Positions 5,376 to 63,147 of a stretch of 64,000 bases of DNA are shown in pieces. Within the stretch, counting starts at the first letter, position 1, and every line of letters starts with the position of its first letter. The translations under genes were made by a program, and so were the position numbers. The notes beneath the pieces were generated by a model, which saw only the letters and a list, made by a program, of their open reading frames with translations, was not told the DNA's origin and searched no databases. Origin of the DNA: a virus; IMG/VR virus record IMGVR_UViG_3300032770_000005, positions 1 through 64,000 of that record; one strand, 5' to 3'.

Positions 5376-6611
5376 ATGTCTGAAGATCTGCTCGCCAAGT
5401 TCGAGGAGGCGCGATCGCGGCTCACGTTCGCACGACCGTACTTCACGGCCGCTGCGTACAAGCTGAAGCTGATCGTCACGCCCGAGGCTGCGAGCCTGCA
5501 CGTGGACACGTACGGCCGGCTGTACGCGGCGCCGGGCTGGCTCGCGCGGTACGACGTGGGCGTCGTCGCGACGGGCATCGCGCACGAGCTGCATCACATC
5601 CTGCGAGACCACGCGGGCCGCGGGAAGACCATCGGCGTAGTGCCGGCCACGCGGGCCGCATGGAACGAAGCATGCGACTGCGAGATCAACCCCGGCCTCA
5701 TGGACGACTGCGTCGGCCAGCAGCCCGTCCTGCCCGTGCTCCCGCCCGAGTGGTGTCTCCGGCCCGAGCAGTTCGGCATGGAGGTGGGGTCCGTCGCCGA
5801 GCGGTACTTCTCCGAGCGAGTGCGGCAGCGCGCGATGAGCATGGACCGTGGCGAAGAGCGCGGACGCACGGCGGACGGCTGCGGCTCCGGGGCCACCGGG
5901 GTCGAGGCGCCGTGGGAGGTCGCGCAGAGCGCGGCCGAGGGCCTTGATGACGCTCAGCTCTGGCAGCTGCGGCGCGACACTGCGCAGGCTGTGATCGAGC
6001 ACACTGCGCGAGGCTCTGTGCCCGGAAGCCTCGTCGACTGGGCAACGGACCTGCTGCGGCCGAAGCAAGTGCCGTGGGACCGGATGCTCGGATCGCTGAT
6101 GCGGCGTGGGGTCCAGCAGGGCGGCAGTGTGCTGCACTCTAGCTACTCGCGCCTCTCGCGGCGGCAAGACGTCTACGGCGAGCTGCTCATGCCGAGCTAC
6201 AGGCGGGTGTCGCCGACGATGGCGTTCGTCCGAGACACCTCGGAGAGCATGCAGCACGTCACCGCGCTCGTGCGTGGAGTGGTCGAGCAAGTCTGCGCCC
6301 ACACGGGCAGCGCGCTGACGCTCATCGACGTGGACGTGGAGGTTCAGGAGGTCCGGCAGGTCTCGTCTGGGCGCATCGCCGCTCACGGCGGCGGCGGGAC
6401 GGACATGCGCGTAGGCATCGAGCGAGCCTTCGCTCATCCTCGCCCGGTGGACGTCGCCATCGTGTGCACCGACTGCGACACGCCTTGGCCGGCGCGACGG
6501 CCTCGCGGTCACGTGATCGTAGCGGCTGTCGGAGCCGCGGATGCCTACCTCGACATGGTGCCGAGCTGGGCGCAGGTGGTGCGGGTCGAACAAGCAGGAG
6601 AAGCTCTGTGA
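5376..6611 (+). CDS. DUF2201-type metallopeptidase/VWA protein
   Basis: 411 aa. The N-terminal domain has a zincin motif HELHH (residues 70-74) followed by N.AC.. (WNEACDCEIN), typical of putative metallopeptidase domains. The C-terminal third is von Willebrand A-like: MIDAS DTSES at 287-291, GGGGTDM and a late DCDTPW. This pairing matches the DUF2201/VWA family, which works with MoxR-type ATPases, here encoded at 2630-3817. The ATPase/VWA pair is likely a chaperone or activation module. Confidence 0.85.
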   Translation: MSEDLLAKFEEARSRLTFARPYFTAAAYKLKLIVTPEAASLHVDTYGRLYAAPGWLARYDVGVVATGIAHELHHILRDHAGRGKTIGVVPATRAAWNEACDCEINPGLMDDCVGQQPVLPVLPPEWCLRPEQFGMEVGSVAERYFSERVRQRAMSMDRGEERGRTADGCGSGATGVEAPWEVAQSAAEGLDDAQLWQLRRDTAQAVIEHTARGSVPGSLVDWATDLLRPKQVPWDRMLGSLMRRGVQQGGSVLHSSYSRLSRRQDVYGELLMPSYRRVSPTMAFVRDTSESMQHVTALVRGVVEQVCAHTGSALTLIDVDVEVQEVRQVSSGRIAAHGGGGTDMRVGIERAFAHPRPVDVAIVCTDCDTPWPARRPRGHVIVAAVGAADAYLDMVPSWAQVVRVEQAGEAL

Positions 6612-7728: not shown

Positions 7729-8150
7729 TCCCCGTCGAACGCCTGGACGCTCTCGATGTTGCTATCAAGCGCGATGAGGTGCTGCGGGGCGCATGGGCTC
7801 GCAAGCGCAACGGGCGCCAGCTGGCGTGCCTGCTCGGGCACATCTCGCCTGAGGCTGCCGCAGCGAAGGATGCGAGCGCATGCCCGGCCGAGACGCTCGA
7901 CCCGTGGTTGGCGCACCTGCTGCCGTACATCGACGACGCATGCTCACGCCGTCGTCGCTACGAGTTCCTGCGACGCACAGCGGCGGTGCTGCGGCGCTGG
8001 CACCAGCTGCCTGCCGGAGTGCGCCGGCGACTCGACTACGAGTGCCGCGCGATTGCGGTACGTGAGTCGCGGCTAGTTTCCGCTGCCGACCGGGTCATCA
8101 ACCAGATGCTCACCGCCATGGAGCGCGAATGCGCGAAGGTGACGACATGA
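7725..8150 (+). CDS. MIPxERLDALD family protein, copy 1 (short)
   Basis: 141 aa; starts MIPVERLDALDVAIKRDEVL. One of seven paralogues in the window. Conserved blocks are GRQLACLLGHISPEA, ACPAETLDPWLAHLL, FLRRTAAVLRRW, RRLDYECRAIAVRE and a C-terminal ADRVINQMLTAMERECAKV. This copy lacks the Ala-rich middle part found in the others. The fold is probably all-helical. Function unknown; it directly precedes copy 2 (ATGA overlap) and the Cas12m-like gene. Confidence 0.8.
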   Translation: MIPVERLDALDVAIKRDEVLRGAWARKRNGRQLACLLGHISPEAAAAKDASACPAETLDPWLAHLLPYIDDACSRRRRYEFLRRTAAVLRRWHQLPAGVRRRLDYECRAIAVRESRLVSAADRVINQMLTAMERECAKVTT

Positions 8151-8788
8151 TCCCGGTCGAACGCCTCGATGCTCTGGACCGTGCGATCGAGCACGGGCAG
8201 GTTCTGCGCCACGAGTGGGCCCTGCTCGGGCACATCTCGCCGGAGGCTGCCGCAGCGAAGGATCCGTTCGCGTGCCCAGCCGAGACGCTCGATGCGTGGT
8301 TCGCGCAGCTGCTGCTGTTCATCGACGACAGATGCTCGCTCGAACGTCGCTACGAGTTCCTGCGCCGTGTGGCGGTCGTGCTGCGCCAATGGGACAGCCT
8401 CCCGTCGGAGGTCAGGTCGCGTCTCGACTACGAGTGCCGCGCGATTGCGGTACGTGAGGCTAGACAGCACATCCCAGCGAGCGAGGAGCCGTCGCTCGCG
8501 GCGCTCGACGTCGTGCTCGCGCTACTCGATCGGGCGAGCACGAGCGGTGAAATCAGCGAGCAGGAGTGGTTGGCGGCGGGACGGGCGGCGTGGTGGCCAT
8601 GGTTGGCGGCCTCGTTCGCGAAGGAGTGGGCGGCGGTGGGGGCGACGACGTGGGCGGCGCGGGCAACGGGGCGAGCGGCGGCGGCGGCACGAGCATCCGA
8701 GGAGGCCGCAGCGTCCGCCGATCGCATGATCGACGCGATGCTCACCGCCATGGAGCGCGAGTGCGCGAAGGTGGCAGCCGGCCGATAG
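8147..8788 (+). CDS. MIPxERLDALD family protein, copy 2
   Basis: 213 aa. It has all family blocks plus a variable Ala/Trp-rich middle (EWLAAGRAAWWPWLAASFAK) before SADRMIDAMLTAMERECAKV. The segment between residues ~25 and 32 is shorter than in the other copies. It ends one base before the Cas12m-like effector, so the two are almost certainly co-transcribed. Confidence 0.8.
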   Translation: MIPVERLDALDRAIEHGQVLRHEWALLGHISPEAAAAKDPFACPAETLDAWFAQLLLFIDDRCSLERRYEFLRRVAVVLRQWDSLPSEVRSRLDYECRAIAVREARQHIPASEEPSLAALDVVLALLDRASTSGEISEQEWLAAGRAAWWPWLAASFAKEWAAVGATTWAARATGRAAAAARASEEAAASADRMIDAMLTAMERECAKVAAGR

Positions 8789-20279: not shown

Positions 20280-20288
20280 GTGACCGAC

Positions 20289-20894
20289 ATGATTCCGACC
20301 GAACGCCTGGACGCTCTCGATGTTGCTATCAAGCGAGGCGAGGTGCTGCGTAGGCGATGGACCCGCAAGACGAAGGATGGGCGGGAACTGGCATGCTTGC
20401 TGGCCCACGTATCGCCGGCAGTCGCCTTACGGCAGGACGCGAGCGCGTGCCCGGCCGCGACGCTCGACCGGTGGTTCGCCTTCTTGCTGCTGTTCATCGA
20501 CGACCGATGCTCGCTACGACGACGGACCGGGTTCTGCGCCGCACAGCGGCGGTGCTGCGGCGCTGGCACCGGCTGCCCGCCGTAGTGCGCCGGCGACTCG
20601 ACTACGAGTGTCGCGCGATTGCAGTGCGTGAAGCACGGCGGCACGTAGCAGCAGGCGCGACGGGCCAGCTTGCTGCGATCGATCGCGTGCTCGCACTACT
20701 CGACCTGGCTGCGGACGGCCACAAGGTCAGCAGGCAGAGGTGGAAAGCGGCTGCCGCGGAGGCTGGGCGGGCGGCGCTAGCAGCGGACGGCGCGACGCTC
20801 GAAGCTGCGTGGGCGGCGCTAGCAGACGGCGCGACGCGCGAAGCTACGCGCATCGCAGCATTGGTAGCTGATCAGGCGGCGGTTCCGTGGACAG
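20289..20894 (+). pseudogene. MIPxERLDALD family copy 3, 5' part, disrupted
   Basis: It starts MIPTERLDALDVAIKRGEVL. The family sequence runs in one frame to about 20,520 and then continues one frame over (VLRRTAAVLRRWHRLPAVV), so one base has been lost or gained. At 20,894 it is interrupted by the IS1-type element. Removing the element with one copy of the target duplication rejoins the reading frame exactly to 24,593-24,753. Confidence 0.85.
20887..20894 (+). repeat. Target-site duplication, left copy
   Basis: GTGGACAG immediately precedes the left inverted repeat. The identical 8 bp follow the right inverted repeat at 24,585-24,592. Confidence 0.92.
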
Positions 20895-40138: not shown

Positions 40139-40549
40139 CTAGTCGGTCCACCCAAGAGCGAGCAGGCGCCGACGCGCGACGTCTCGATACCCCTGGACCG
40201 CACCGATCGCGTAGATCAGCGTGCCGCGCTCCTTCAACGTGAGTCCGCGAGTGGCCGCGGCGGCATCCATCATCGATAGCCTGGTGATCCAGGCCTCGAA
40301 GAACACGACATCGCCTCTGCGGATGGCATCGTAGGCATCACGCTCGCTGGTGTCGTAGAGGTTCTTGCCCCAGAGAACCACGAACTGCGGCAGTCTGCTG
40401 TACGGCACCGTGTGGCCGGGGCCCCACATCGCGTCTCGCAGGTTGCGCCACTGCGACAGAAAGCCGTGTGCCGAGCGCGAGCGCTTGAGTGAGCGCGGAA
40501 CCGCGTCGATGACCTTGGGCAGGTGATAGACGCTGGGCCTGCCGCTCAT
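40139..40549 (-). CDS. Hypothetical protein, 136 aa
   Basis: It starts MSGRPSVYHLPKVIDAVPRS, overlapping the phosphatase stop by ATGA. Basic with a helical C-terminus. Not recognised; co-transcribed with the phosphatase. Confidence 0.65.
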   Translation of the reverse strand: MSGRPSVYHLPKVIDAVPRSLKRSRSAHGFLSQWRNLRDAMWGPGHTVPYSRLPQFVVLWGKNLYDTSERDAYDAIRRGDVVFFEAWITRLSMMDAAAATRGLTLKERGTLIYAIGAVQGYRDVARRRLLALGWTD

Positions 40550-41001
40550 CGCTGGGCGAGAAGAAACTGCTCGAACATGGGGTTCGCGAGCGCCTCTTCT
40601 CCACCGCCGAGCTTGCGATGTCGGCGCACGACCGCGATCGCCTGCTGTGGCGTCCAGGTCGGGTAGAGCTGGAGCAGCGTCAGGGCGACGAGGAGGCCAG
40701 ATCTGTTCTTCCCTTGCATGCACGTCACGAGCACGCGCTTGCCGTGGCGCACAGCGCGGGCGATCTGCGCCGCGCTTTGCCAGAGCACGGGGATGACGTC
40801 GCGCGGGACGGGACGGTAGATGTCGTCGTCCATCGGCACGCGCAGGACCATCTTCCCGGCTGGCGCCACGAGCTTCGGCTGCGCTTCCATCGCCGAGTAG
40901 ACGATGACGTCGAAGAAGCTGAACAGCCGAGGGTCCGCGCCCGGGTACGCGCCCTGCGCGAGGTGATCGCGTACGATCCAGTTCCAGTCCCGGTAGCTCA
41001 C
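40546..41001 (-). CDS. PTP/dual-specificity phosphatase-like protein
   Basis: 151 aa from GTG at 41,001, chosen because it lies exactly 7 bases after a -10 box (41008-41013); GTG 41,028 is inside the operator. VTCMQGKNRSGL is the CX5R catalytic loop (C94, R100), and VPMDDDIYR upstream fits the general acid loop. A phage-encoded protein phosphatase that could act on host signalling or on the element's own kinase (42,265-43,464). Confidence 0.8.
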   Translation of the reverse strand: MSYRDWNWIVRDHLAQGAYPGADPRLFSFFDVIVYSAMEAQPKLVAPAGKMVLRVPMDDDIYRPVPRDVIPVLWQSAAQIARAVRHGKRVLVTCMQGKNRSGLLVALTLLQLYPTWTPQQAIAVVRRHRKLGGGEEALANPMFEQFLLAQR

Positions 41002-41007
41002 GAGCAG

Positions 41008-41046
41008 ATGGTAGAACTTGTCCGACACCGTCGCAACGGGTACGGT
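41008..41046. promoter_or_regulatory. Divergent promoters sharing one TGTCNGACA operator
   Basis: - strand: TTGCGA (41031-41036), 17 bp, TACCAT (41008-41013) for the phosphatase. + strand: TTGTCC (41018-41023), 17 bp, TACGGT (41041-41046), ATG 7 bases later at 41,053. The palindrome AACTTGTCCGACACCGT (41015-41031) lies in the - spacer and covers the + strand -35. One repressor would switch both off. Confidence 0.75.
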
Positions 41047-41352: not shown

Positions 41353-41976
41353 TCACGCGCGGGCGCGTCGCCGGCGAACGACCGCGACCAGGACGAGCGC
41401 GAGCGCCCCGACCGCGGTAGCGCCGATGGCGATCGCGACGCCCATGCCGGCGCCTCCACGGGCCGCCTGGTCCATCACCGTCGCCATCGCCTGACCCCAG
41501 CCCTGCGCGGAGGTGGGCGTGAGGTGCCAGCCGAGCGAGTCGCGCGGCAGCGAGGTCGGCGTGCTCGGGTACGCGTCGATGTAGTTCGCGCCGAAGATCG
41601 CCTGGTTCTGCGTCCGCAGCGCATCTCCCACTTGCTGCGACGGCTGGCCGCTGCTCGTCGGCGAGGCGTCCGGCGGGTACTGCGGCGGACCGCTCATGTA
41701 GACGGGCGCGTGCACGCTGTCACGCATCTGGACGAGCGCGTTGCTCGTGGCCGTGCCGGCCGGGCTGTTGTGCCCGAAGATGAGCAGGACGAGATCGTTC
41801 TGAGCGGCCAGCGACGTGTACTGGTTCCAGAGCGACGGCGTGTTGACGTACGTGACGGGCGAGTCGCCGTCGTTGTGGATCTGCGTCACGGTGTGCCCAA
41901 GCGCGACGAGCGCGGCCTTCGCGGCGGCGCCGGGGTTGCCGGCCTGCGAGTCGCCGATGATCAGGATGTTCGCCAC
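41353..41976 (-). CDS. Membrane-anchored SGNH-type hydrolase
   Basis: 207 aa. IIGDSQAG near the start has the Ser nucleophile (S10), LIFGHNS is the GxN block and DSLGWHLTP the DxxH block. A C-terminal membrane helix ends in VVRRRRARA. Esterase/lipase or polysaccharide deacetylase activity is possible. The Arg tail is shared with other membrane proteins here. Confidence 0.75.
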   Translation of the reverse strand: MANILIIGDSQAGNPGAAAKAALVALGHTVTQIHNDGDSPVTYVNTPSLWNQYTSLAAQNDLVLLIFGHNSPAGTATSNALVQMRDSVHAPVYMSGPPQYPPDASPTSSGQPSQQVGDALRTQNQAIFGANYIDAYPSTPTSLPRDSLGWHLTPTSAQGWGQAMATVMDQAARGGAGMGVAIAIGATAVGALALVLVAVVRRRRARA

Positions 41977-41977
41977 G

Positions 41978-42268
41978 TCAGCGTCTCCGCTTGCTCGTCC
42001 GACGACCGCGAGGCGAGGACACGTTCTTCTGCACGACCGGCACGACGTACTGAGCTTCGAGCGCCGACAGTGTCGGCTTCGGCGCCGGCGACGGCGTGAC
42101 GTAGACCGCGTATGAGGTCTTGCTCGCTCGGCTCCGCGAGGGCAGCTCCTCGATCTTGCCGAACCAGTTGCCCACGCTCTGGAGCTTCCAGCCTATGAGC
42201 GCGTTGACCGCGTTCGCGGGCGTGGTCCAGCGTCCGATCTCCAGCCAGTTGTCGTCGTCCTTGCTCAT
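41978..42268 (-). CDS. Small basic protein, 96 aa
   Basis: It starts MSKDDDNWLEIGRWTTPANA and ends RGRRTSKRRR. Its ATG overlaps the stop of the kinase-metallopeptidase gene. Function unknown. Confidence 0.6.
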   Translation of the reverse strand: MSKDDDNWLEIGRWTTPANAVNALIGWKLQSVGNWFGKIEELPSRSRASKTSYAVYVTPSPAPKPTLSALEAQYVVPVVQKNVSSPRGRRTSKRRR

Positions 42269-43464
42269 CCGAGTCTCCGTGGTCGCGACGGCCGCCCGCC
42301 GCAGCTGATGCACTGTACGTCGTTCACGCCGTACTCGATCGACCGACCGAACACGTGTTCGGCGATCTTGTCGGCGCGACGCTCGATGCTCTCGGGCAGC
42401 CGTCCGTAACGGCGCTCGACCGCGGCGCGTCCGAACCGGAACTCCACCGCGTGCCCGAACTCGTGCGCCACGAGGCCATCGATGTACGCCTGCGGCAGCT
42501 GCTCCGTCTTCGCGGCGAACGCGATGACGAGCGGGTCACCCTTCTTGCAGTAGCCGAACTGCCGCTCGGAGCCGTGGCCGTTGTCGCTGGCCGCATGCTC
42601 GTCGAGGTGCAGCTCTACGGTGCCGAGGTCCGGCCACTCGCGCGCCGCCGCATCGAAGTGCCGATCGAAAGATCGGCGCACGCGCTCCATCGAGCCGTTG
42701 TGGGCTAGTGGCACCTGGGGGCCACGGACTCGGCGCACGCGCTCGTGAACCGACGGCTCACCGAAGTCGATGATGACGGGCATGTCGCGCTGGATCGACC
42801 ACCTGACGTTCTCGATGTGCAGGTCTTCCGCGTGCACGCCACGCGCGGCCAGCCAATCGTAGCCCGCCAAGATGGTCCCCATCATGGCGTCAGCGTAGGC
42901 GCGCTCGCGCTCCCGAACGCGAGCCTCCTTGGGGTCGTTGCCAAGACGGGCTGTCCACTGCGGCACCACAGCATGGAGGCTCTTGATACCGCCGACACGG
43001 TCGAAGCACTGCCACTCGGACATCCGTTCGAGAGCTAGCTGGAGCAAGAGGAAGGCATGGGCGCGCTGCTCTTCTCCGGGTTGCTCGGCCGTGCCTTCGG
43101 CGAGGATCAGGTATCCGCTGGCACGACCCGGCATCCGCCAGACGCCGTAGACCTGAACGAGGCCCGGCACGGGTGCCTTGGCTCCGGCCACTAGCGCCGC
43201 GGCCCGGGCGTCGCTGACGTCGAACGTGTACTTGAGCACGCGACCGTTGGGTAGCCACCAGGCACGTGCGTACGCGCCTTTGCCAGCGAGGTGCTCGTCG
43301 TCCAGCCAGTCGGGCGGCACGTCCAGCTCGCGCAGCAGCCCGGTCATCGACCGCAGCTTGAGGGTCCAGTAGCCCTCGTCGGCCGGAGGCTGTCCGTTCG
43401 CGGTGACCCCCGCAGCGGCCTGGAGCGCTGGCGACAGGCTGACGATCTTCGGGTTCGACCGCAC
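42265..43464 (-). CDS. Kinase-like/metallopeptidase fusion
   Basis: 399 aa, GTG start. A kinase-like domain: GKGAYARAWW (Gly loop), K78, HAEDLHIEN (211-219, catalytic D214 and N219) and DFG (233-235), as in aminoglycoside/choline-type kinases. The C-terminal domain has HEFGH (334-338), a zincin site. CISCGG near the end adds a Cys pair. The combination in one protein is unusual. It could phosphorylate and cut the same target, or use the kinase domain to regulate the protease. Confidence 0.72.
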   Translation of the reverse strand: MRSNPKIVSLSPALQAAAGVTANGQPPADEGYWTLKLRSMTGLLRELDVPPDWLDDEHLAGKGAYARAWWLPNGRVLKYTFDVSDARAAALVAGAKAPVPGLVQVYGVWRMPGRASGYLILAEGTAEQPGEEQRAHAFLLLQLALERMSEWQCFDRVGGIKSLHAVVPQWTARLGNDPKEARVRERERAYADAMMGTILAGYDWLAARGVHAEDLHIENVRWSIQRDMPVIIDFGEPSVHERVRRVRGPQVPLAHNGSMERVRRSFDRHFDAAAREWPDLGTVELHLDEHAASDNGHGSERQFGYCKKGDPLVIAFAAKTEQLPQAYIDGLVAHEFGHAVEFRFGRAAVERRYGRLPESIERRADKIAEHVFGRSIEYGVNDVQCISCGGRPSRPRRLG

Positions 43465-43473
43465 GAGGCGATC

Positions 43474-44301
43474 TTACCGCAGGGACATCGTGCCGTCCTT
43501 CTTGAACTCCACCATCGCGCCCGGGTGCAGATGCGTGAAGCCGACCTGCGCGAGCACCGTCATGCCGCTCGGGCTCGCGAGCAGCATGTCGAGGACCACG
43601 GCGTCCATCTGCATCTCGCGGTGCAGCGTCAAGATCAGCTCGGTCCAGTCGGCGGGACGCCAGCCGCGGTGATCCAGGATGTGCTCGCGCACGCGATCGA
43701 GCAGCTGGGGCGACTCCGCCGGCGGCCTCGTAGGCTCGCCATCGTCGGTCGTCTCGCCATCGTCGGGCTGCTTGCTGAACCAGAGGAGCGACTCGACGTC
43801 CAGATCTTCGGGGTCTTCCCCCGCGGCCAGCGCGTCGAGCGCTTCCTGGGGCCGCTGGATGCGCACGGGTGCACGCGGTGCGGGCGCCGGCGCCGGGGCC
43901 GCGATCGCGGGCTCGATCGCGCCAGCGGCGACGGCTTCCGCGAGCGTCGTAGGAGGATGCTCGACGGGCATGCGCGCGAGCCAGGGATGGTCGCGCATGC
44001 GCTCGGGGGCTGCGGTCAGCACCAGGTCTTCGGCTCGCGTGAGCGGCGTTGCCGCGTCCCGATAGAGGTCGAGGTGCACGGCGAGCGGCGACTTCTTGTG
44101 GTCGGCAGCCCCGGCAAGCGCCGCGGTCGCCATGCCCTGGCGAACGCCCTCGCTGAAGGCCCAGGTCTCCATCTTGGCGACGTTGCGGAGCACCTCGGAG
44201 ATCACCTGTGGCGATGCTCCGCAGGTTGCGAGGCGCAGGTACATCTCGACCTTGAGCGCCGAGTATCGCCGTTCGTCTTCTTCGAGTCGGAAGTTCGGCA
44301 T
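43474..44301 (-). CDS. Hypothetical protein, 275 aa
   Basis: Mostly helical, with an Ala/Pro linker (IAAPAPAPAPRAPV) separating the N-terminal domain from a smaller C-terminal one. It belongs to the same - strand operon. No family recognised. Confidence 0.6.
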   Translation of the reverse strand: MPNFRLEEDERRYSALKVEMYLRLATCGASPQVISEVLRNVAKMETWAFSEGVRQGMATAALAGAADHKKSPLAVHLDLYRDAATPLTRAEDLVLTAAPERMRDHPWLARMPVEHPPTTLAEAVAAGAIEPAIAAPAPAPAPRAPVRIQRPQEALDALAAGEDPEDLDVESLLWFSKQPDDGETTDDGEPTRPPAESPQLLDRVREHILDHRGWRPADWTELILTLHREMQMDAVVLDMLLASPSGMTVLAQVGFTHLHPGAMVEFKKDGTMSLR

Positions 44302-44323: not shown

Positions 44324-44560
44324 TCACAGCTCTTCCTCGTCGAGCGCGTCGCCCAGGCCGCCGCTCTCGTCGTCGTCGTCGGGATCGAAGATCCCGGCCT
44401 TGCCCTTGTCCTCGCCGTACTCGGCAGCGCGCTCGCGCAGCGCTCGCGCGAACATGATCGACCACGCCTCGATGGTCTTCGGCTTCTGGTCGAGCCCCGC
44501 GATGATGTCGCCGGCGTTGGCTTCGAGCCACTCCTCGAACTCGTCGAATAGCACGCGCAT
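44324..44560 (-). CDS. Small acidic protein, 78 aa
   Basis: ATG at 44,560 is 7 bases after the - strand -10. The protein ends in an Asp/Glu-rich tail (DPDDDDESGG...DEEEL). First gene of the - strand operon under a TGTCNGACA operator. The acidic tail recalls DNA mimics, but that is speculation. Confidence 0.65.
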   Translation of the reverse strand: MRVLFDEFEEWLEANAGDIIAGLDQKPKTIEAWSIMFARALRERAAEYGEDKGKAGIFDPDDDDESGGLGDALDEEEL

Positions 44561-44566
44561 GCGGCG

Positions 44567-44635
44567 AGAGTATGAAGAACGTGTCCGACAGGTCAAGTCC
44601 CAGATCTCGCCTCGCCTGTCCTCGCGGTGTAACCT
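44567..44635. promoter_or_regulatory. Divergent control region with operator
   Basis: - strand: TTGACC (44591-44596), 18 bp, TACTCT (44567-44572), ATG 7 bases on. The palindrome AACGTGTCCGACAGGTC (44578-44594) covers this spacer. + strand: TAACCT (44630-44635) is a -10 8 bases before the muramidase ATG; its -35 is weak. Confidence 0.7.
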
Positions 44636-44642
44636 CTCGGAC

Positions 44643-45479
44643 ATGAGCTACAGGGCCGTCCGACTCGTGCGTTCGGCGCCACGCCGCGTCTACGTGCGGC
44701 GCGGCCTTGGATTGCGGCGCGGCCTTGGGCAGTCGGTCCCAGCGACACCGGACCTCACGCAGTGGCGGCAGGACGTGTCGCTGGCCGCGCAAGCCGGCAT
44801 CCCGGTACTCGCGCTCAAGGCGATCCGCTCGAACGAGTCCGGCGGCGACCCGAGCGTCATCCGCTTCGAGTCGAGGATCTTCAACGACCTGACGAACAAC
44901 CAGTACGCCTCGCAGCCGGCGTTCTCGGGCGGTGCTGGCTACAGCGGGACGGGCACGTCGCTGCCGAACGCCTTTCAGCAGGCCTACCGGCTCGATCCGA
45001 CGAACGCCGTGAACGCTACGTCGTGGGGCGCCTACCAGGTGCTGCTGCGTGACGCGGGGCCGCAGATCTGGGCGCAGGCCGGCAACGACCCCGCCCGCTT
45101 CATCCAGATGTTCAACGCCGACCCCGCGAGCGTGAGCGAGCAGATCTTGGTGAGCTGGTTCAAGAACCCGCAGCACGCTGCGGCACAGCAGGCGGCGCAG
45201 CAGTACGACTGGGTCACCCTTGCGCATCACTACAACGGCTGCGCGCTGCCGTGCGACACGTACGCAGGCCGGCTGGAGGACGCCTACAACGCGTGGCTGC
45301 CGCAGTGGCAGATCGTGCAGCCCGAGCTGGCCCAGCAGGCCGCCTACATCGCGATCGGCGTGGGCGCGGTCGGCATCCTCGCGCTCGCGGGGCTCACCTA
45401 CGCGATCATGCGCCGCCGTCGTCAGCGAGCTGCGGCTGCGGCGGCACCCGCTCCAGCGGCGGCACCTGCCGCGGCCTGA
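44643..45479 (+). CDS. Muramidase with C-terminal membrane anchor
   Basis: 278 aa. ALKAIRSNESGGDPSVIRFE (E65) followed by SWGAYQVLL and LAHHYNGCALPCDTYAGRLE matches the N-acetylmuramidase (DUF3380-type) lysin layout. The C-terminus has one membrane helix (AYIAIGVGAVGILALAGLTY) and an Arg/Ala/Pro tail. Likely a membrane- or virion-tethered peptidoglycan hydrolase for entry or lysis. The Arg-rich N-terminus is unusual. Confidence 0.8.
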   Translation: MSYRAVRLVRSAPRRVYVRRGLGLRRGLGQSVPATPDLTQWRQDVSLAAQAGIPVLALKAIRSNESGGDPSVIRFESRIFNDLTNNQYASQPAFSGGAGYSGTGTSLPNAFQQAYRLDPTNAVNATSWGAYQVLLRDAGPQIWAQAGNDPARFIQMFNADPASVSEQILVSWFKNPQHAAAQQAAQQYDWVTLAHHYNGCALPCDTYAGRLEDAYNAWLPQWQIVQPELAQQAAYIAIGVGAVGILALAGLTYAIMRRRRQRAAAAAAPAPAAAPAAA

Positions 45480-47303: not shown

Positions 47304-47993
47304 GTGATCCCCACAGAGCGACTGGACGCGCTGGACCGGGCCATCGAGCGCGGGGAAGTGCTGCGCAACGACTGGGCCCGGGAACAGGATGGTCATCAGC
47401 TGGCGTGCCTGCTCGCACATCTTTCGCCAGAGGTGGCGGTGGAGAAGTCGGCGGACGCCTGCCCCGCCAAGACCCTCGACCCGTGGTTCGCGCACCTGTT
47501 GCCGTGGATCGATGACGCGTGCTCACTCGAACGACGCGACGAGTTCCTGCGTCGCACGGCGGCGGTCCTGCGGCGCTGGGACGCACTGTCAGCCGAGACG
47601 CGTTGCCGGCTCGACTACGAATGTCGCGCGATTGCGGTGCGAGAGTCGCGGCTACGTGTGTCCGCGAGCGAAGAGCAGGCGCTTGCGGCAGTCGACGGCA
47701 TGCTTGCGTTGCTAGACCGGGCGGCCGTGGGCGGTGAGGTCAGCGCGCAGGAGTGGTCGGCGGCGGCGGCGACGGCGCGGGCGGCGGCCGCACAGGAGTG
47801 GTCGGCGGCGGCGGCGGCGGCGGCCGCGCAAGTGCGGGCGGCGGCGGCGGGGGCGGCCGCGTGGGCGGCGCGGGCGGCACCGGCTTCGGCGCGGGCGGCA
47901 GCAGCGGCTTGGGCGCGGGCGGCGGCGTCCGATCGAATGATCGACCGCATGCTCACCGCCATGGAGCGCGAGTGCGCGAAGGTGACGCCATGA
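47304..47993 (+). CDS. MIPxERLDALD family protein, copy 4
   Basis: 229 aa, GTG start right at the promoter. Full set of family blocks with an expanded Ala-rich middle (AQEWSAAAATARAAAAQEWS). Nearly identical in sequence to the next copy, which overlaps it by ATGA: a recent tandem duplication. Confidence 0.8.
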   Translation: MIPTERLDALDRAIERGEVLRNDWAREQDGHQLACLLAHLSPEVAVEKSADACPAKTLDPWFAHLLPWIDDACSLERRDEFLRRTAAVLRRWDALSAETRCRLDYECRAIAVRESRLRVSASEEQALAAVDGMLALLDRAAVGGEVSAQEWSAAAATARAAAAQEWSAAAAAAAAQVRAAAAGAAAWAARAAPASARAAAAAWARAAASDRMIDRMLTAMERECAKVTP

Positions 47994-48673
47994 TCCCTAC
48001 GGAACGGTTGGACGCGCTGGACCGGGCCATCGAGCGCGGGGAGGTGCTGCGCAACGACTGGGCTCGGGAGCAGGACGGTCGCCAGCTCGCGTGCCTGCTC
48101 GCGCATCTTTCGCCAGAGGTGGCGGTGGAGAAGTCGGCGGACGCCTGTCCGACCAAGACGCTCGACCCGTGGTTCGCGCATCTGCTGCCGTGGATCGACG
48201 ATGCGTGCTCGCTGGAGCGCCGCGACGAGTTCTTGCGTCGCACGGCGGCAGTGCTGCGGCGCTGGGACGCGCTGTCGGCAGAGACTCGGCGGCGTCTCGA
48301 CTACGAGTGCAGGGCGATCGCGGTGCGAGAGGCGCGGCTGCACGTGTCTGCGAGCGAAGAGCAGGCGCTTGCGGCGATCGACAGCATGTTCGCGTTGCTC
48401 GACCGCGCGATCGCGGGCGGTGAGGTCAGCAAGCAGGAGTGGTCGGCGGCGGCGGCGTCGGCGCGGGCGGTGGTCGCACAGGAGTGGTCGGCGCCGGCGG
48501 CGGGGGCGGCAGCGGCCGCGCAAGTGCGGGCGGCGGCGGCGCGTGCGGCACAGCTGGCGACTGAGGCGGTGTTGGCGCCCGAGGTGGCGGCTCAGGCGAT
48601 GGCGTCCGATCGCATGATCGACCAGATGCTCTCCGCCATGGAGCGCGAGTGCGCGAAGGCGGCGGTGACATGA
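47990..48673 (+). CDS. MIPxERLDALD family protein, copy 5
   Basis: 227 aa. Very similar to copy 4 but with a different Ala-rich segment length and content (EWSAPAAGAAAAAQVRAAAA). Suggests that GCG-repeat slippage diversifies the family. Confidence 0.8.
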   Translation: MIPTERLDALDRAIERGEVLRNDWAREQDGRQLACLLAHLSPEVAVEKSADACPTKTLDPWFAHLLPWIDDACSLERRDEFLRRTAAVLRRWDALSAETRRRLDYECRAIAVREARLHVSASEEQALAAIDSMFALLDRAIAGGEVSKQEWSAAAASARAVVAQEWSAPAAGAAAAAQVRAAAARAAQLATEAVLAPEVAAQAMASDRMIDQMLSAMERECAKAAVT

Positions 48674-48882: not shown

Positions 48883-49104
48883 GTGGAGGAGTGCGAGCTG
48901 TGCGCTCAGCCGGTCTCCGTCGAGCGTGTGATCGAACGCCCGAGCGCGGGGGAGATCGCCTACCTGACGAAGTTCTTCTGGGTCATCGACCCGGCGCGGC
49001 TCGTGTTCTGCAACGCCATCTGCCGGCGCCGCTGGCACAGCTTGCGGCGGCGAGCTACATGGATGGCCCATTCGGCCGACTGCATGTGCGCTGAGTGTCT
49101 GTAG
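48883..49104 (+). CDS. Small Cys-rich protein, 73 aa
   Basis: GTG directly after the previous stop. CELCAQ near the start and FCNAICRRRWH, then ADCMCAECL at the end, give a zinc-finger-like Cys pattern. Confidence 0.6.
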   Translation: MEECELCAQPVSVERVIERPSAGEIAYLTKFFWVIDPARLVFCNAICRRRWHSLRRRATWMAHSADCMCAECL

Positions 49105-49109
49105 GGTTC

Positions 49110-49130
49110 GAGAGGAGACAGGCTCCTCTC
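49110..49130 (+). terminator. Perfect 8-bp stem-loop before the RRM gene
   Basis: GAGAGGAG (49110-49117), loop ACAGG, CTCCTCTC (49123-49130). It could be a terminator or a 5' leader element of the RRM gene. Being purine-rich with GGAG, it might sequester a ribosome site. No T-run. Confidence 0.55.
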
Positions 49131-49145
49131 CTGATGGAGTGTGCG

Positions 49146-49532
49146 ATGGGTAAGAAGGTGTTCGTGGGCGGTCTGCCTTGGGCGATCGACGATCAAGAGC
49201 TGGCGAACGTGTTCAAGCAGGTCGGTGCGGTCGTCGAAGCGAAGGTCATCACCGACCGCGAGACCGGCCGGTCCCGTGGGTTCGGGTTCGTGACGTTCGC
49301 GAGCGAAGATGCGGTGCCGCTCGCCATCAAGGAGTTCGACGGCGCCGAGCTGCAAGGTCGCAGGATCAACGTCAACGAGGCGCAGGAGCGCTCGGGCGGT
49401 GGTGGCGGCCCACGGCACTCCGGCGGCGGGGGCGGCCATCAGCAGGCGCCGCGTGGCGGAAACAGCGGCGGCGGGCGCCGCGATCGCGACGAGGGTCGCC
49501 GCGGCCGACGGCGCGAGCACGACGACTGGTAG
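49146..49532 (+). CDS. RRM RNA-binding protein with Gly/Arg tail
   Basis: 128 aa from MGKKVFVGGLPW. RNP2 is VFVGGL and RNP1 RGFGFVTF (44-51), a single RRM as in cyanobacterial/proteobacterial Rbp proteins. The tail is Gly/Arg/Asp-rich (GGGGGPRHSGGGGGHQQ). Bacterial RRMs often respond to cold or act as RNA chaperones. In this element it may bind element transcripts. ATG 49146 fits the RRM start. Confidence 0.9.
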   Translation: MGKKVFVGGLPWAIDDQELANVFKQVGAVVEAKVITDRETGRSRGFGFVTFASEDAVPLAIKEFDGAELQGRRINVNEAQERSGGGGGPRHSGGGGGHQQAPRGGNSGGGRRDRDEGRRGRRREHDDW

Positions 49533-52235: not shown

Positions 52236-52489
52236 TGGCGATGTCTCTCGTCGAGCGCGTTCGCAGGTTCAAGAACACGACCGGCACGTGCTCGTGGGGC
52301 GGCGCGCACGCAGGGCTCCATCCGGATGCGTGCGTCTGCAATCGAGAACCGGATGCGTATCCGGGGACGCCGCACACGCACTACGATGAGCCGCCGCACG
52401 AGTGTGCGCGCTGCGGGTGCACGGCGTACCAGCCGTGGCTCACGCTCGACTTCGTCATCCCGGGTCTGACCGTGGAGCCTACGACATGA
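52235..52489 (+). CDS. Small Cys/His-rich protein, 84 aa
   Basis: TGATG overlap. CSW..H..LHPDACVC and ECARCGCT suggest a zinc site. Unknown role. Confidence 0.6.
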   Translation: MAMSLVERVRRFKNTTGTCSWGGAHAGLHPDACVCNREPDAYPGTPHTHYDEPPHECARCGCTAYQPWLTLDFVIPGLTVEPTT

Positions 52490-53265
52490 TTCCGCTCGAA
52501 CGCCTCGATGCCCTTGATGCCGCGATCGAGCGCGGGGAAGTGCTGCGTGGTGAGTGGACTTGCGAGGAGGACGGGCGCCAGCTGGCGTGTCTGCTCGCGC
52601 ATGTCTCGCCTGAGGTGGCGACGGCGAAGTCGGTGTCCGCCTGCCCCGCCAAAACGCTCGACCCGTGGTTCGCGCATCTGCTGCTGTACATCGACGATGA
52701 GTGCTCGCTCGAACGTCGCGACGAGTTCCTGCGACGCACGGCAGCAGTGCTACGGCAGTGGCACCGGCTATCCACGGAGACGCGCCGGCGGCTCGACTAC
52801 GAATGCAGAGCGGTTGCGGTCCGTGAGGTGAGGCCACACGTGCCGCTGAGCGAGGCGCAGATGATTGTGGCGATCGACAGCGCCCTCTTGCTGATTGCCA
52901 GAGCATGCGCAGGCGAGGTACTCAGCGAGCAGGAAGGGGAGGCGGTGCGCTGTTCGTTGTTCGCCGTAGACGAGGCGATGCAGTTGGCAGCGACGGCGGC
53001 GGTCCGGTCGGTGGCAGCTAGCGCGTTGCCGTGGGCAGAGCGAGCGGTGTGGTCGTCGTCGTCGACGGTGGATCCCGCGGCAGCTGCGAATGCTGCGCGA
53101 GCGGCAACGCGAGCGGTGGTGGCATTCGCGTTCGATGTGCTGGAGCCGGCAGGCTCGGCGGCGGCGGTCGCGGCGTGGACTGCGTCCGCAGAGGCGTCCG
53201 CAGATCGAATGATCAACCAGATGCTCTCCGCCATGGAGCGGGAGTGCGCGAAGGTGGCGGCGTGA
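52486..53265 (+). CDS. MIPxERLDALD family protein, copy 6
   Basis: 259 aa. All blocks present (GRQLACLLAHVSPEV, ACPAKTLDPWFAHLL, FLRRTAAVLRQW, RRLDYECRAVAVRE, ASADRMINQMLSAMERECAK). The variable part is longer and less repetitive than in copies 4/5. Confidence 0.8.
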   Translation: MIPLERLDALDAAIERGEVLRGEWTCEEDGRQLACLLAHVSPEVATAKSVSACPAKTLDPWFAHLLLYIDDECSLERRDEFLRRTAAVLRQWHRLSTETRRRLDYECRAVAVREVRPHVPLSEAQMIVAIDSALLLIARACAGEVLSEQEGEAVRCSLFAVDEAMQLAATAAVRSVAASALPWAERAVWSSSSTVDPAAAANAARAATRAVVAFAFDVLEPAGSAAAVAAWTASAEASADRMINQMLSAMERECAKVAA

Positions 53266-53582
53266 TCTCCGTGGTCGACGTCGCAACGGAGAAGGAGTTC
53301 CTCGACCGCGCGACGGCCGCCGGCACTACGGTCCACGTTCTTCGGACCACCGCGGTTGCTCCTGTGCCGCTCGGAGGCGGGACAGTGCTCCTGCGTTCTG
53401 CCATCGCGCTCCAGTACTCGTTCGAGACCCATTCCGAGAACGGTGATACGCGGTGGGTGTATCGCGAGCGCTGCGTCGCGGATGAGCATGGCATCGTGGA
53501 CCTCTCGAACGTTTTGCTCACGCGGATCGCGGACGCAGGCGTTCCTACGGTCGTGTTCACGCAGCGCAGCGGGTCGCTATGA
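53262..53582 (+). CDS. Hypothetical protein, 106 aa
   Basis: GTG overlapping the previous stop. Beta-rich (TTVHVLRTTAVAPVPLGGGT). Lies between two family copies. Confidence 0.6.
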   Translation: MISVVDVATEKEFLDRATAAGTTVHVLRTTAVAPVPLGGGTVLLRSAIALQYSFETHSENGDTRWVYRERCVADEHGIVDLSNVLLTRIADAGVPTVVFTQRSGSL

Positions 53583-54385
53583 TTCCGGTCGAACGCCTCG
53601 ACGCCCTTGATGCCGCGATCGAGCGCGATGAGGTGCCGCTTGCATGGAAGAAAGAGCAGGGCGGACGGGTACTCTTGTCCTTCCTCGCTCACCTTTCTCC
53701 GGTGTTTGCGGCGCAACCGTCTTGGGGGCTCCTGACGAGCCGACCCGGCGACTCGTTCTACTACGGCTTGGTCGAGGGGACGCTCGACCCGTGGCTTGCT
53801 GAGCTACTTGAGTGGATCACGCGTACCGGCTCGCCTGAGCGGCGCGACCGCGTTCTGCGTCGCACGGCGGCAGTGCTGCGGCGCTGGGACGCGCTGTCGG
53901 CAGAGACGCGACGCCAGCTCGACTACGAGTGCAGGGCGATCGTGGTGCGCGAGGCTAGACAGCACGTACCGGAGAGTGAAGAGCGCTCGCTCGCGGCGAT
54001 CGACAACGTGCTCGCGTTGCTCGATCGCGCGATCGCTGGTGGCGAGGTCGGCGAGCGGGAGTGGTCGGCGGTGGAGGCGAGCGGGATTGCAGAGGCGCAG
54101 GCATTGAGCGCACGAGGGGGGAGCGTTCGCGCGCGAGGAGGGGACATTCATGACATTCGCGTAGCGTGGCAGGCTACACAGGCCGCATACGTTGCGTGCG
54201 AGCGGTTGCCAAGGGCCGCCAAGTACGCAGTGTATCGTGCAGTAGATGCGGCGCCGTTGACACTGGTACCGCGGCCGCCTGACGGGACACATTGGTACTT
54301 TTATGCACAATGTGTAGTTGCCGACCGGATCATAGACCAGATGCTCACCGCCATGGAGCGCGAATGCGCGAAGGTGACGACATGA
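53579..54385 (+). CDS. MIPxERLDALD family protein, copy 7
   Basis: 268 aa, most diverged copy. The GRQLACLL block reads GRVLLSFLAHLSPV, but FLRRTAAVLRRW (as VLRRTAAVLRRW), RQLDYECRAIVVREARQHVP and VVADRIIDQMLTAMERECAK are kept. The middle is not Ala-rich. Confidence 0.78.
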   Translation: MIPVERLDALDAAIERDEVPLAWKKEQGGRVLLSFLAHLSPVFAAQPSWGLLTSRPGDSFYYGLVEGTLDPWLAELLEWITRTGSPERRDRVLRRTAAVLRRWDALSAETRRQLDYECRAIVVREARQHVPESEERSLAAIDNVLALLDRAIAGGEVGEREWSAVEASGIAEAQALSARGGSVRARGGDIHDIRVAWQATQAAYVACERLPRAAKYAVYRAVDAAPLTLVPRPPDGTHWYFYAQCVVADRIIDQMLTAMERECAKVTT

Positions 54386-62311: not shown

Positions 62312-62659
62312 ATGATGGCCAGAGGCTCGGCCGCGCTGCCTTCCTACACGCCCTCGCTGTACCTGCCCGGCTCGATGGGCCGCTACCGGCAGTACCCGCG
62401 CACCGTCGTCACACGCATCCCCGGCGCCGGCTACAAGGTCGGAAAGCTGGTCTGGGGCGAGCAGGTCCTGAACCTCGACGGCGCCGCGGTCGCGCCGTTC
62501 AACTACGCGTCCGTGCCTCTGCTCGGCCTGGGGCAGATCTTGCCGGCCGCGATGACGGCGAGCCCGCTGCTCGTGGCTGGCGCGCTCATCCTCATCTCGA
62601 ATCTCGCAAAGTCACGCGGCTCGGTCGCGAGCAACGCGCGCCGCCGGAGCCGACGATGA
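62312..62659 (+). CDS. Virion-type membrane protein, 115 aa
   Basis: Soluble N-terminal half (PSYTPSLYLPGSMGRYRQYP), one helix (QILPAAMTASPLLVAGALIL) and the ending RRRSRR. Same layout as several other small proteins. The stop overlaps the next ATG. Confidence 0.6.
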   Translation: MMARGSAALPSYTPSLYLPGSMGRYRQYPRTVVTRIPGAGYKVGKLVWGEQVLNLDGAAVAPFNYASVPLLGLGQILPAAMTASPLLVAGALILISNLAKSRGSVASNARRRSRR

Positions 62660-63147
62660 GCTACGCGAAGGTGCTCACGGCCGCGCAGGCGAACGCTCAG
62701 ATGGGCTGGACGCCGGCGAAGATGCAGAGCTACTGGCGCCAGCGGGCGCAGCGATGCAGGGGCTTCGCCGACGAGGGCGCCTGCCTCGCTCGTGTCGCGC
62801 GCCATGCGCCGGTCACGATCGTGCCCGCAGGGCTTGGTCAGACGACCGCAGCTGACGTCGGCACGACGATCGCCGACGTCACGTCGGTCGTCGCCGGTCT
62901 GCTCGCGAACCCGGACCAGACGCTCCAGCAGCGGGGGCCGGCGATCGTGACCGCGCTCGACTCGTACGTCGTCGGCCCGCTCGTCGACGCGGCGGCGGCG
63001 CGTGCGACGCCCTATCTGGTCGGCTACCTGGGCCCGCCGGTCGTCGCGATGTACGTCATGGTCGCGCTGAGCACCTGGTTCTCGTACCAGGTCTTCGTTC
63101 AGAACCGCGACCGAGGTGTCGCGAAGAACAGGCGACGACGACGCTGA
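62656..63147 (+). CDS. Virion-type membrane protein, 163 aa
   Basis: N-terminal charged domain (QMGWTPAKMQSYWRQRAQRC), two hydrophobic parts (GTTIADVTSVVAGLLANP; PVVAMYVMVALSTWFSYQVF) and a C-terminal NRRRRR. Function unknown. Confidence 0.6.
   Translation: MSYAKVLTAAQANAQMGWTPAKMQSYWRQRAQRCRGFADEGACLARVARHAPVTIVPAGLGQTTAADVGTTIADVTSVVAGLLANPDQTLQQRGPAIVTALDSYVVGPLVDAAAARATPYLVGYLGPPVVAMYVMVALSTWFSYQVFVQNRDRGVAKNRRRRR

What the first reader, a model, noticed from the sequence alone, without database searches (positions are those of the whole stretch)
42265..43464. Kinase-like and metallopeptidase domains fused in one protein
HxxDLHxEN and DFG of a kinase fold precede a HEFGH zincin site in a 399-aa protein. 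A CX5R phosphatase is encoded 1.3 kb away under the shared operator type. A kinase, a phosphatase and a protease in one regulon suggest control of host signalling or toxin activity.
Basis: partly seen in the sequence, partly recalled or inferred. Interest (0 to 1): 0.62.

Follow-up and report, generated by a model that had tools for sequence, protein, structure and literature searches.

The report
Viral kinase-protease fusion with swappable partner
A large uncultured bacterial-type virus encodes one protein that joins a trimmed-down kinase-like domain to a zinc-protease-like domain, and in related viruses the same protease-like domain stands alone or is joined to other enzyme domains instead, as if the virus swaps the tool attached to it.

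Summary
Window 42265-43464 (minus strand, 399 aa) encodes a kinase-like domain (G61/G63, K78, D214, N219, D233-F-G) followed by a zincin-like domain (H334-E-F-G-H338, then E361). Both are conserved in relatives, so neither motif is a chance hit. The window is part of a 152,857-bp virus record; five other IMG/VR records hold homologues. In G004 the kinase-zincin fusion is kept. In G003 the zincin is alone; in G005 it is joined to DUF5661; in G001 and G006 to ADP-ribosyltransferase (ART-PolyVal-like) domains. The zincin is therefore the constant core and the kinase one of several exchangeable partners. The surrounding locus, including the CX5R phosphatase (all six records), is conserved. A palindrome, AACNTGTCNGACANNTT, is enriched near gene starts across the clade, but serves many unrelated genes. 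Best reading: a small polyvalent-protein-like effector, with a trans-acting zincin plus a kinase that modifies host (or viral) proteins: a new variant of a known kind that matches neither Kinase-PolyVal nor MPTase-PolyVal. Enzymatic activity, packaging or injection, and targets are not shown.

The parts
42265..43464 (-). kinase-like/zincin fusion gene, 399 aa
   Evidence: homologue with the same architecture in G004
42745..43326 (-). kinase-like domain, residues about 47-240: G-loop G61/G63, K78, D214, N219, D233-F-G; no C-terminal lobe after DFG
42808..42834 (-). HAEDLHIEN catalytic loop (D214, N219)
42760..42768 (-). DFG motif (residues 233-235)
42325..42693 (-). zincin-like domain, residues about 258-380
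42451..42465 (-). HEFGH zinc-binding motif (residues 334-338)
42370..42384 (-). ERRAD, with E361 as probable third zinc ligand
   Evidence: invariant in six homologues; ligand role inferred from the zincin topology in PMC5512222
43429..43455 (-). NPKIVSLSP, N-terminal motif identical in G000 and G004 fusions, in a segment of low predicted confidence; role unknown
43474..44301 (-). 275-aa conserved neighbour (RLEEDERRY), upstream gene of the apparent operon
44324..44560 (-). 78-aa acidic protein (FDEFEEWL), probable first gene of the operon
   Evidence: start chosen at the ATG 26 bp from the palindrome centre
44578..44594 (.). operator-like palindrome AACGTGTCCGACAGGTC in front of the operon
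44631..44647 (.). imperfect second palindrome at the start of the divergent muramidase gene
41978..42268 (-). 96-aa protein of unknown function
   Evidence: no family; no homologue found in the other loci
41353..41976 (-). SGNH-like protein with C-terminal membrane segment and basic tail; conserved in all six loci
   Evidence: L036 homologue DUF459 E 1.4e-4 and Lipase_GDSL_2 E 0.002
41015..41031 (.). operator-like palindrome over the phosphatase start
40546..41028 (-). dual-specificity-like phosphatase, CX5R (TCMQGKNRSG)
   Evidence: DSPc E 9.7e-8; conserved in six records
40139..40549 (-). conserved protein downstream of the phosphatase, function unknown

Best explanation
The protein is a compact two-domain effector of polyvalent-protein style in an undescribed clade of large viruses. 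The C-terminal zincin-like domain is the constant core and probably cleaves a protein in trans. The N-terminal domain is a C-terminally truncated kinase, related to a second stand-alone kinase of the same viruses, that probably phosphorylates host (or viral) proteins; the partner is exchanged in relatives for ADP-ribosyltransferase domains, another protein-modifying activity. A conserved neighbouring phosphatase could reverse or complement the phosphorylation. Shown: motifs, kinase fold model, conservation, partner exchange, conserved locus, shared palindrome. Inferred: enzyme activity, host targets, delivery into the host, link between kinase and phosphatase.
For: Catalytic residues of both domains are invariant across homologues. 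Kinase fold: AF2 with an 11-sequence alignment, pLDDT about 85-92 for residues 41-110; Foldseek E 3.5e-5, VIA Z 10.1; the profile of the stand-alone relatives matches 1,656 PDB sequences at E<=1, best 1.4e-6, the 60 listed all being protein kinases; hhalign links it to the fusion kinases at 93-96%. Partner exchange around one zincin: kinase in G000 and G004, alone in G003, DUF5661 in G005 (E 7e-17), ART-PolyVal in G006 (E 3.6e-17, two stretches) and G001 (E 6.3e-7). A stand-alone 145-aa zincin with all ligands argues for a substrate of its own. The locus is conserved. PMC5512222 describes zincins as the hub domain of injected multidomain phage proteins, with ARTs and with kinases that have lost the C-terminal subdomain.
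Against: No match to Kinase-PolyVal or MPTase-PolyVal; the zincin assignment rests on motif, ligands and predicted topology, with weak profile matches only. No evidence of packaging or injection; the gene is far from the putative virion gene cluster (about 109-147 kb). The fusion kinases sit on very long branches, so activity may be altered. The catalytic loop reads DxHxxN, as in ABC1/aminoglycoside-type kinases, so the substrate need not be a protein.
Confidence: 0.55

Rival explanations
1. The zincin is an autoprocessing domain: it cuts the polypeptide to release the kinase (or ART or DUF5661) domain after synthesis or delivery, as proposed for phage P1 DdrB.
For: The zincin is attached to a variable cargo; PMC5512222 proposes self-processing for zincins in polyvalent proteins. 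The linker 236-256 has low predicted confidence.
Against: G003 keeps a 145-aa zincin with all ligands and nothing to release. In G001 and G006 the cargo is C-terminal rather than N-terminal.
Confidence: 0.2
2. The kinase-like domain no longer transfers phosphate: it is an ATP- or partner-binding regulatory domain that switches the protease.
For: Very long branches of the fusion kinases, loss of the C-terminal lobe, acidic residue at the probable alpha-C position changed from E to D, HRD histidine absent in G004.
Against: K78, D214, N219 and D233 are all kept in both fusions and in the stand-alone family; truncated kinases with intact active sites are described for polyvalent proteins.
Confidence: 0.15
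3. The zincin is a virion maturation protease, perhaps trimming the many proteins with a MSYRR...GLGQ start; fused domains are assembly factors.
For: It is present in every record that covers the locus; the muramidase encoded next door has a GLGQ start.
Against: The locus lies outside the putative virion gene cluster, some fused partners are of a host-modification type (ART), and no cleavage evidence exists.
Confidence: 0.1

Closest known systems
Polyvalent proteins of phages and conjugative elements (Iyer et al. 2017, PMC5512222)
   Same: Disparate enzymatic domains in one virus-encoded polypeptide; zincin as hub; ART-PolyVal partners; kinases without the C-terminal subdomain
   Different: Small (145-451 aa, one to three domains); zincin and kinase match neither Pfam polyvalent family; delivery not shown; no ArdC-N found in these proteins
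Kinase-PolyVal (PF18762)
   Same: Truncated kinase with active-site residues kept
   Different: No match to the Pfam model in any of seven records
MPTase-PolyVal (PF18818) and zincins such as YgjP, M57, M78
   Same: HExxH, downstream glutamate, helix-strand-helix order
   Different: No significant match; own signature DNGxGxxRQ[FY]xxC and, in four of six, a C-terminal CxxC
Phage T7-type protein kinases
   Same: Foldseek finds phage protein kinase models
   Different: No sequence match found; fused to a zincin; C-terminal lobe missing

Membership tests
Polyvalent proteins | two or more domains of disparate activity in one virus-encoded polypeptide | tested here: met
   (activities inferred from motifs)
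Polyvalent proteins | shares domains with known polyvalent proteins (ART-PolyVal) | tested here: inconclusive
   met for the homologue in G006 (3.6e-17, above cut-off) and nearly in G001 (30.7 against 31.2 bits), not for the window protein itself
Polyvalent proteins | injected into the host with the viral DNA | not testable with these tools
   needs virion proteomics
MPTase-PolyVal (PF18818) | match to the family model | tested here: not met
   0 of 7 records at E<=10
Zincin-like metallopeptidases | HExxH helix plus glutamate in the following helix, behind a small beta sheet | tested here: inconclusive
   ligands invariant in six homologues; AF2 secondary structure fits; no significant profile match; weak hhalign to YgjP and YggI, P 0.004-0.006 against 0.27 for a control; the domain's fold was not searched alone
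Protein-kinase-like superfamily | glycine-rich loop, beta-3 lysine, catalytic D and N, DFG, kinase N-lobe fold | tested here: met
Protein-kinase-like superfamily | complete C-terminal lobe | tested here: not met
   zincin starts about 23 residues after DFG; AF2 model
Kinase-PolyVal (PF18762) | match to the family model | tested here: not met
   0 of 7 records at E<=10
Kinase-PolyVal (PF18762) | conserved Glu before strand 2 and Gln in the last N-lobe strand | not tested
   family alignment not available here
Dual-specificity phosphatase (neighbour 40546-41028) | CX5R loop and DSPc model | tested here: met
   E 9.7e-8, 32.3 bits against a cut-off of 33.5; homologues in G004 and G005 above the cut-off; TCxxGxNRSG conserved in six

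The most novel reading that the evidence does not exclude
A new zincin family anchors a partner-swapping effector locus in an undescribed large-virus clade: the virus keeps one protease and exchanges the attached protein-modifying enzyme (kinase, ADP-ribosyltransferase, other) together with a dedicated phosphatase, so that host proteins are cleaved and reversibly modified by one system.
Probability: 0.3. Interest if true: 0.68.

Novelty: new variant of a known kind. Interest (0 to 1): 0.5.

Why it matters
If true, it gives small, separable examples of the zincin-hub design described mainly for large injected phage proteins. Natural single-domain, kinase-fused and ART-fused versions of one zincin make the question of what these proteases do (self-cutting or cutting other proteins) directly testable.

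Tried and rejected
Single-sequence searches found no relative in phages, plasmids, viral or genome contigs; relatives came only through a conserved protein of the putative virion cluster. AF2 without an alignment was useless (pLDDT 33). Profile search of the zincin against PDB sequences found nothing. Zincin scan of genome contigs found nothing. In the PDB rows shown the matches are to the kinase part, so the zincin fold was not tested there. The enlarged zincin rescan added no new record. No motif like NPKIVSLSP was found in other proteins of the loci held. The paper searches run here showed no described kinase-zincin fusion of this kind; that library is partial. Control of a toxin: nothing found in the locus supports it.

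Full report
What is there. The ORF at 42265-43464 is on the minus strand and encodes 399 aa from a GTG start. The window is bases 1-64000 of a 152,857-bp virus record. The record carries integrase and muramidase genes, but its candidate virion proteins match no Pfam family, and PHROGs only weakly. The host is unknown.

Relatives. Direct searches with the protein found nothing. A conserved 291-aa protein of the putative virion cluster (119247-120122) led to four related IMG/VR records, G001-G004. A profile of the zincin segment then added two more, G005 (locus L036) and G006 (locus L038). Three of G001-G004 hold a homologue of the window protein; the fourth, G002, is a 62-kb record.

Architecture. 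G004 keeps the full kinase-zincin fusion (415 aa; 36% identity over the whole length). In G003 the zincin is a separate 145-aa protein. In G005 it follows a DUF5661 domain (E 7e-17). In G001 (341 aa) it precedes an ART-PolyVal-like domain (E 6.3e-7), and in G006 (451 aa) it precedes ART-PolyVal (E 3.6e-17, two matched stretches). The zincin segments are 47-58% identical to that of the window protein. The constant part is thus the zincin, and the kinase is one of several partners.

Kinase. Seven sequences (two fusions and five stand-alone kinase-like proteins, one from each of the five records tested) share G61, G63, K78, D214, N219, D233 and G235. The stand-alone family's profile matches protein kinases in the PDB (best E 1.4e-6), and hhalign joins it to both fusions (93.4% and 96.4%). 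An AF2 model from an 11-sequence alignment gives a kinase-like structure up to residue about 240, and Foldseek against viral models lists phage protein kinases. No C-terminal lobe follows DFG. The loop reads DLHxxN, a form also seen in ABC1 and aminoglycoside-type kinases (own knowledge; the ABC1 model matches P0002 at E 5.8e-4), so a protein substrate is probable but not certain.

Zincin. HExxH and the glutamate of the later ERRAD are invariant in six sequences, with a signature DNGxGxxRQ[FY]xxC in front. The model shows helix 260-276, short strands, the long HEFGH helix 325-353 and the ERRAD helix 360-372, mostly at pLDDT above 80. This is the order given for zincins of polyvalent proteins in PMC5512222. 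Known family models match only weakly. E. coli YgjP and YggI align at the active-site helix with P 0.004-0.006 against 0.27 for an unrelated control.

Surroundings. The 275-aa upstream protein, the SGNH-like protein, the phosphatase and the integrase have homologues in the other loci; the phosphatase is in six of seven records. The palindrome TGTCNGACA occurs 15 times in G000 and 11-28 times in each relative, against 0-3 for the reversed control pattern. Of 61 sites in the DNA held, 32 lie within 90 bp upstream of a gene start against 6.9 +/- 2.5 for random positions; some of these loci overlap, so the counts are approximate. It precedes the phosphatase here and in G004, the zincin-ART gene in G006 and several stand-alone kinase genes, but also many unrelated genes.

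Interpretation. PMC5512222 describes multidomain phage and plasmid proteins in which zincins are the hub, joined to ARTs and to kinases without a C-terminal subdomain, thought to be injected. The locus looks like that at small scale. It cannot be filed under MPTase-PolyVal or Kinase-PolyVal, whose models do not match, and injection is untested. The stand-alone zincin in G003 favours a trans-acting protease over pure self-processing. The exchange of kinase for ART favours modification of proteins of the host (or the virus). Which proteins, and when, is unknown.

Both domain calls and the phosphatase neighbour are right, the zincin with the reservation that its fold was not searched alone. The shared-operator remark is right in kind, but the element is a clade-wide one. 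Control of host signalling remains a reasonable inference; toxin control has no support.

Noticed in passing
G000 (15 sites; window 25147, 25786, 31536, 38731, 41019, 44582, 46745, 61348): Palindrome AACNTGTCNGACANNTT, enriched near gene starts and present across seven virus records; the regulator is unknown.
   Followed up: partly
G000 73412-74182 (L002:9412-10182): Stand-alone kinase-like protein, also short after the DxG motif, with homologues in all related records tested; in several records the palindrome sits just upstream.
   Followed up: yes
window 44643-45479, 62656-63147; G000 63795-64166, 72964-73374, 127194-141473: Many proteins start with MSYRR-like sequence followed by GLGQ/GMGQ, and many end in a probable membrane segment plus an Arg-rich tail; possible sorting or processing signal.
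   Followed up: no
G000 119247-120122 (L004:15247-16122): Very conserved 291-aa protein (62-68% identity across records) without any family match; candidate virion protein marking an undescribed virus clade.
   Followed up: partly
L037:9005-10348 and L038:9341-10678: A 445-aa gene follows the zincin in both ART-type loci and was not found in the other loci held.
   Followed up: partly
window 43429-43455: NPKIVSLSP is identical in the two fusion proteins at an otherwise diverged, low-confidence N terminus.
   Followed up: partly
window 8129-8788, 20280-20585, 47304-47993, 47753-48673, 52402-53265, 53579-54385: Six ORFs share a MIP(T/V/L)ERLDALD stretch near their start; a paralogous family of unknown function.
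   Followed up: no
window 5376-6611: 411-aa protein with HELHH, a second possible metallopeptidase.
   Followed up: no
window 49095-49532: Short protein with a stretch that looks like an RNA-recognition motif (KVFVGGLPWAIDDQEL).
   Followed up: no
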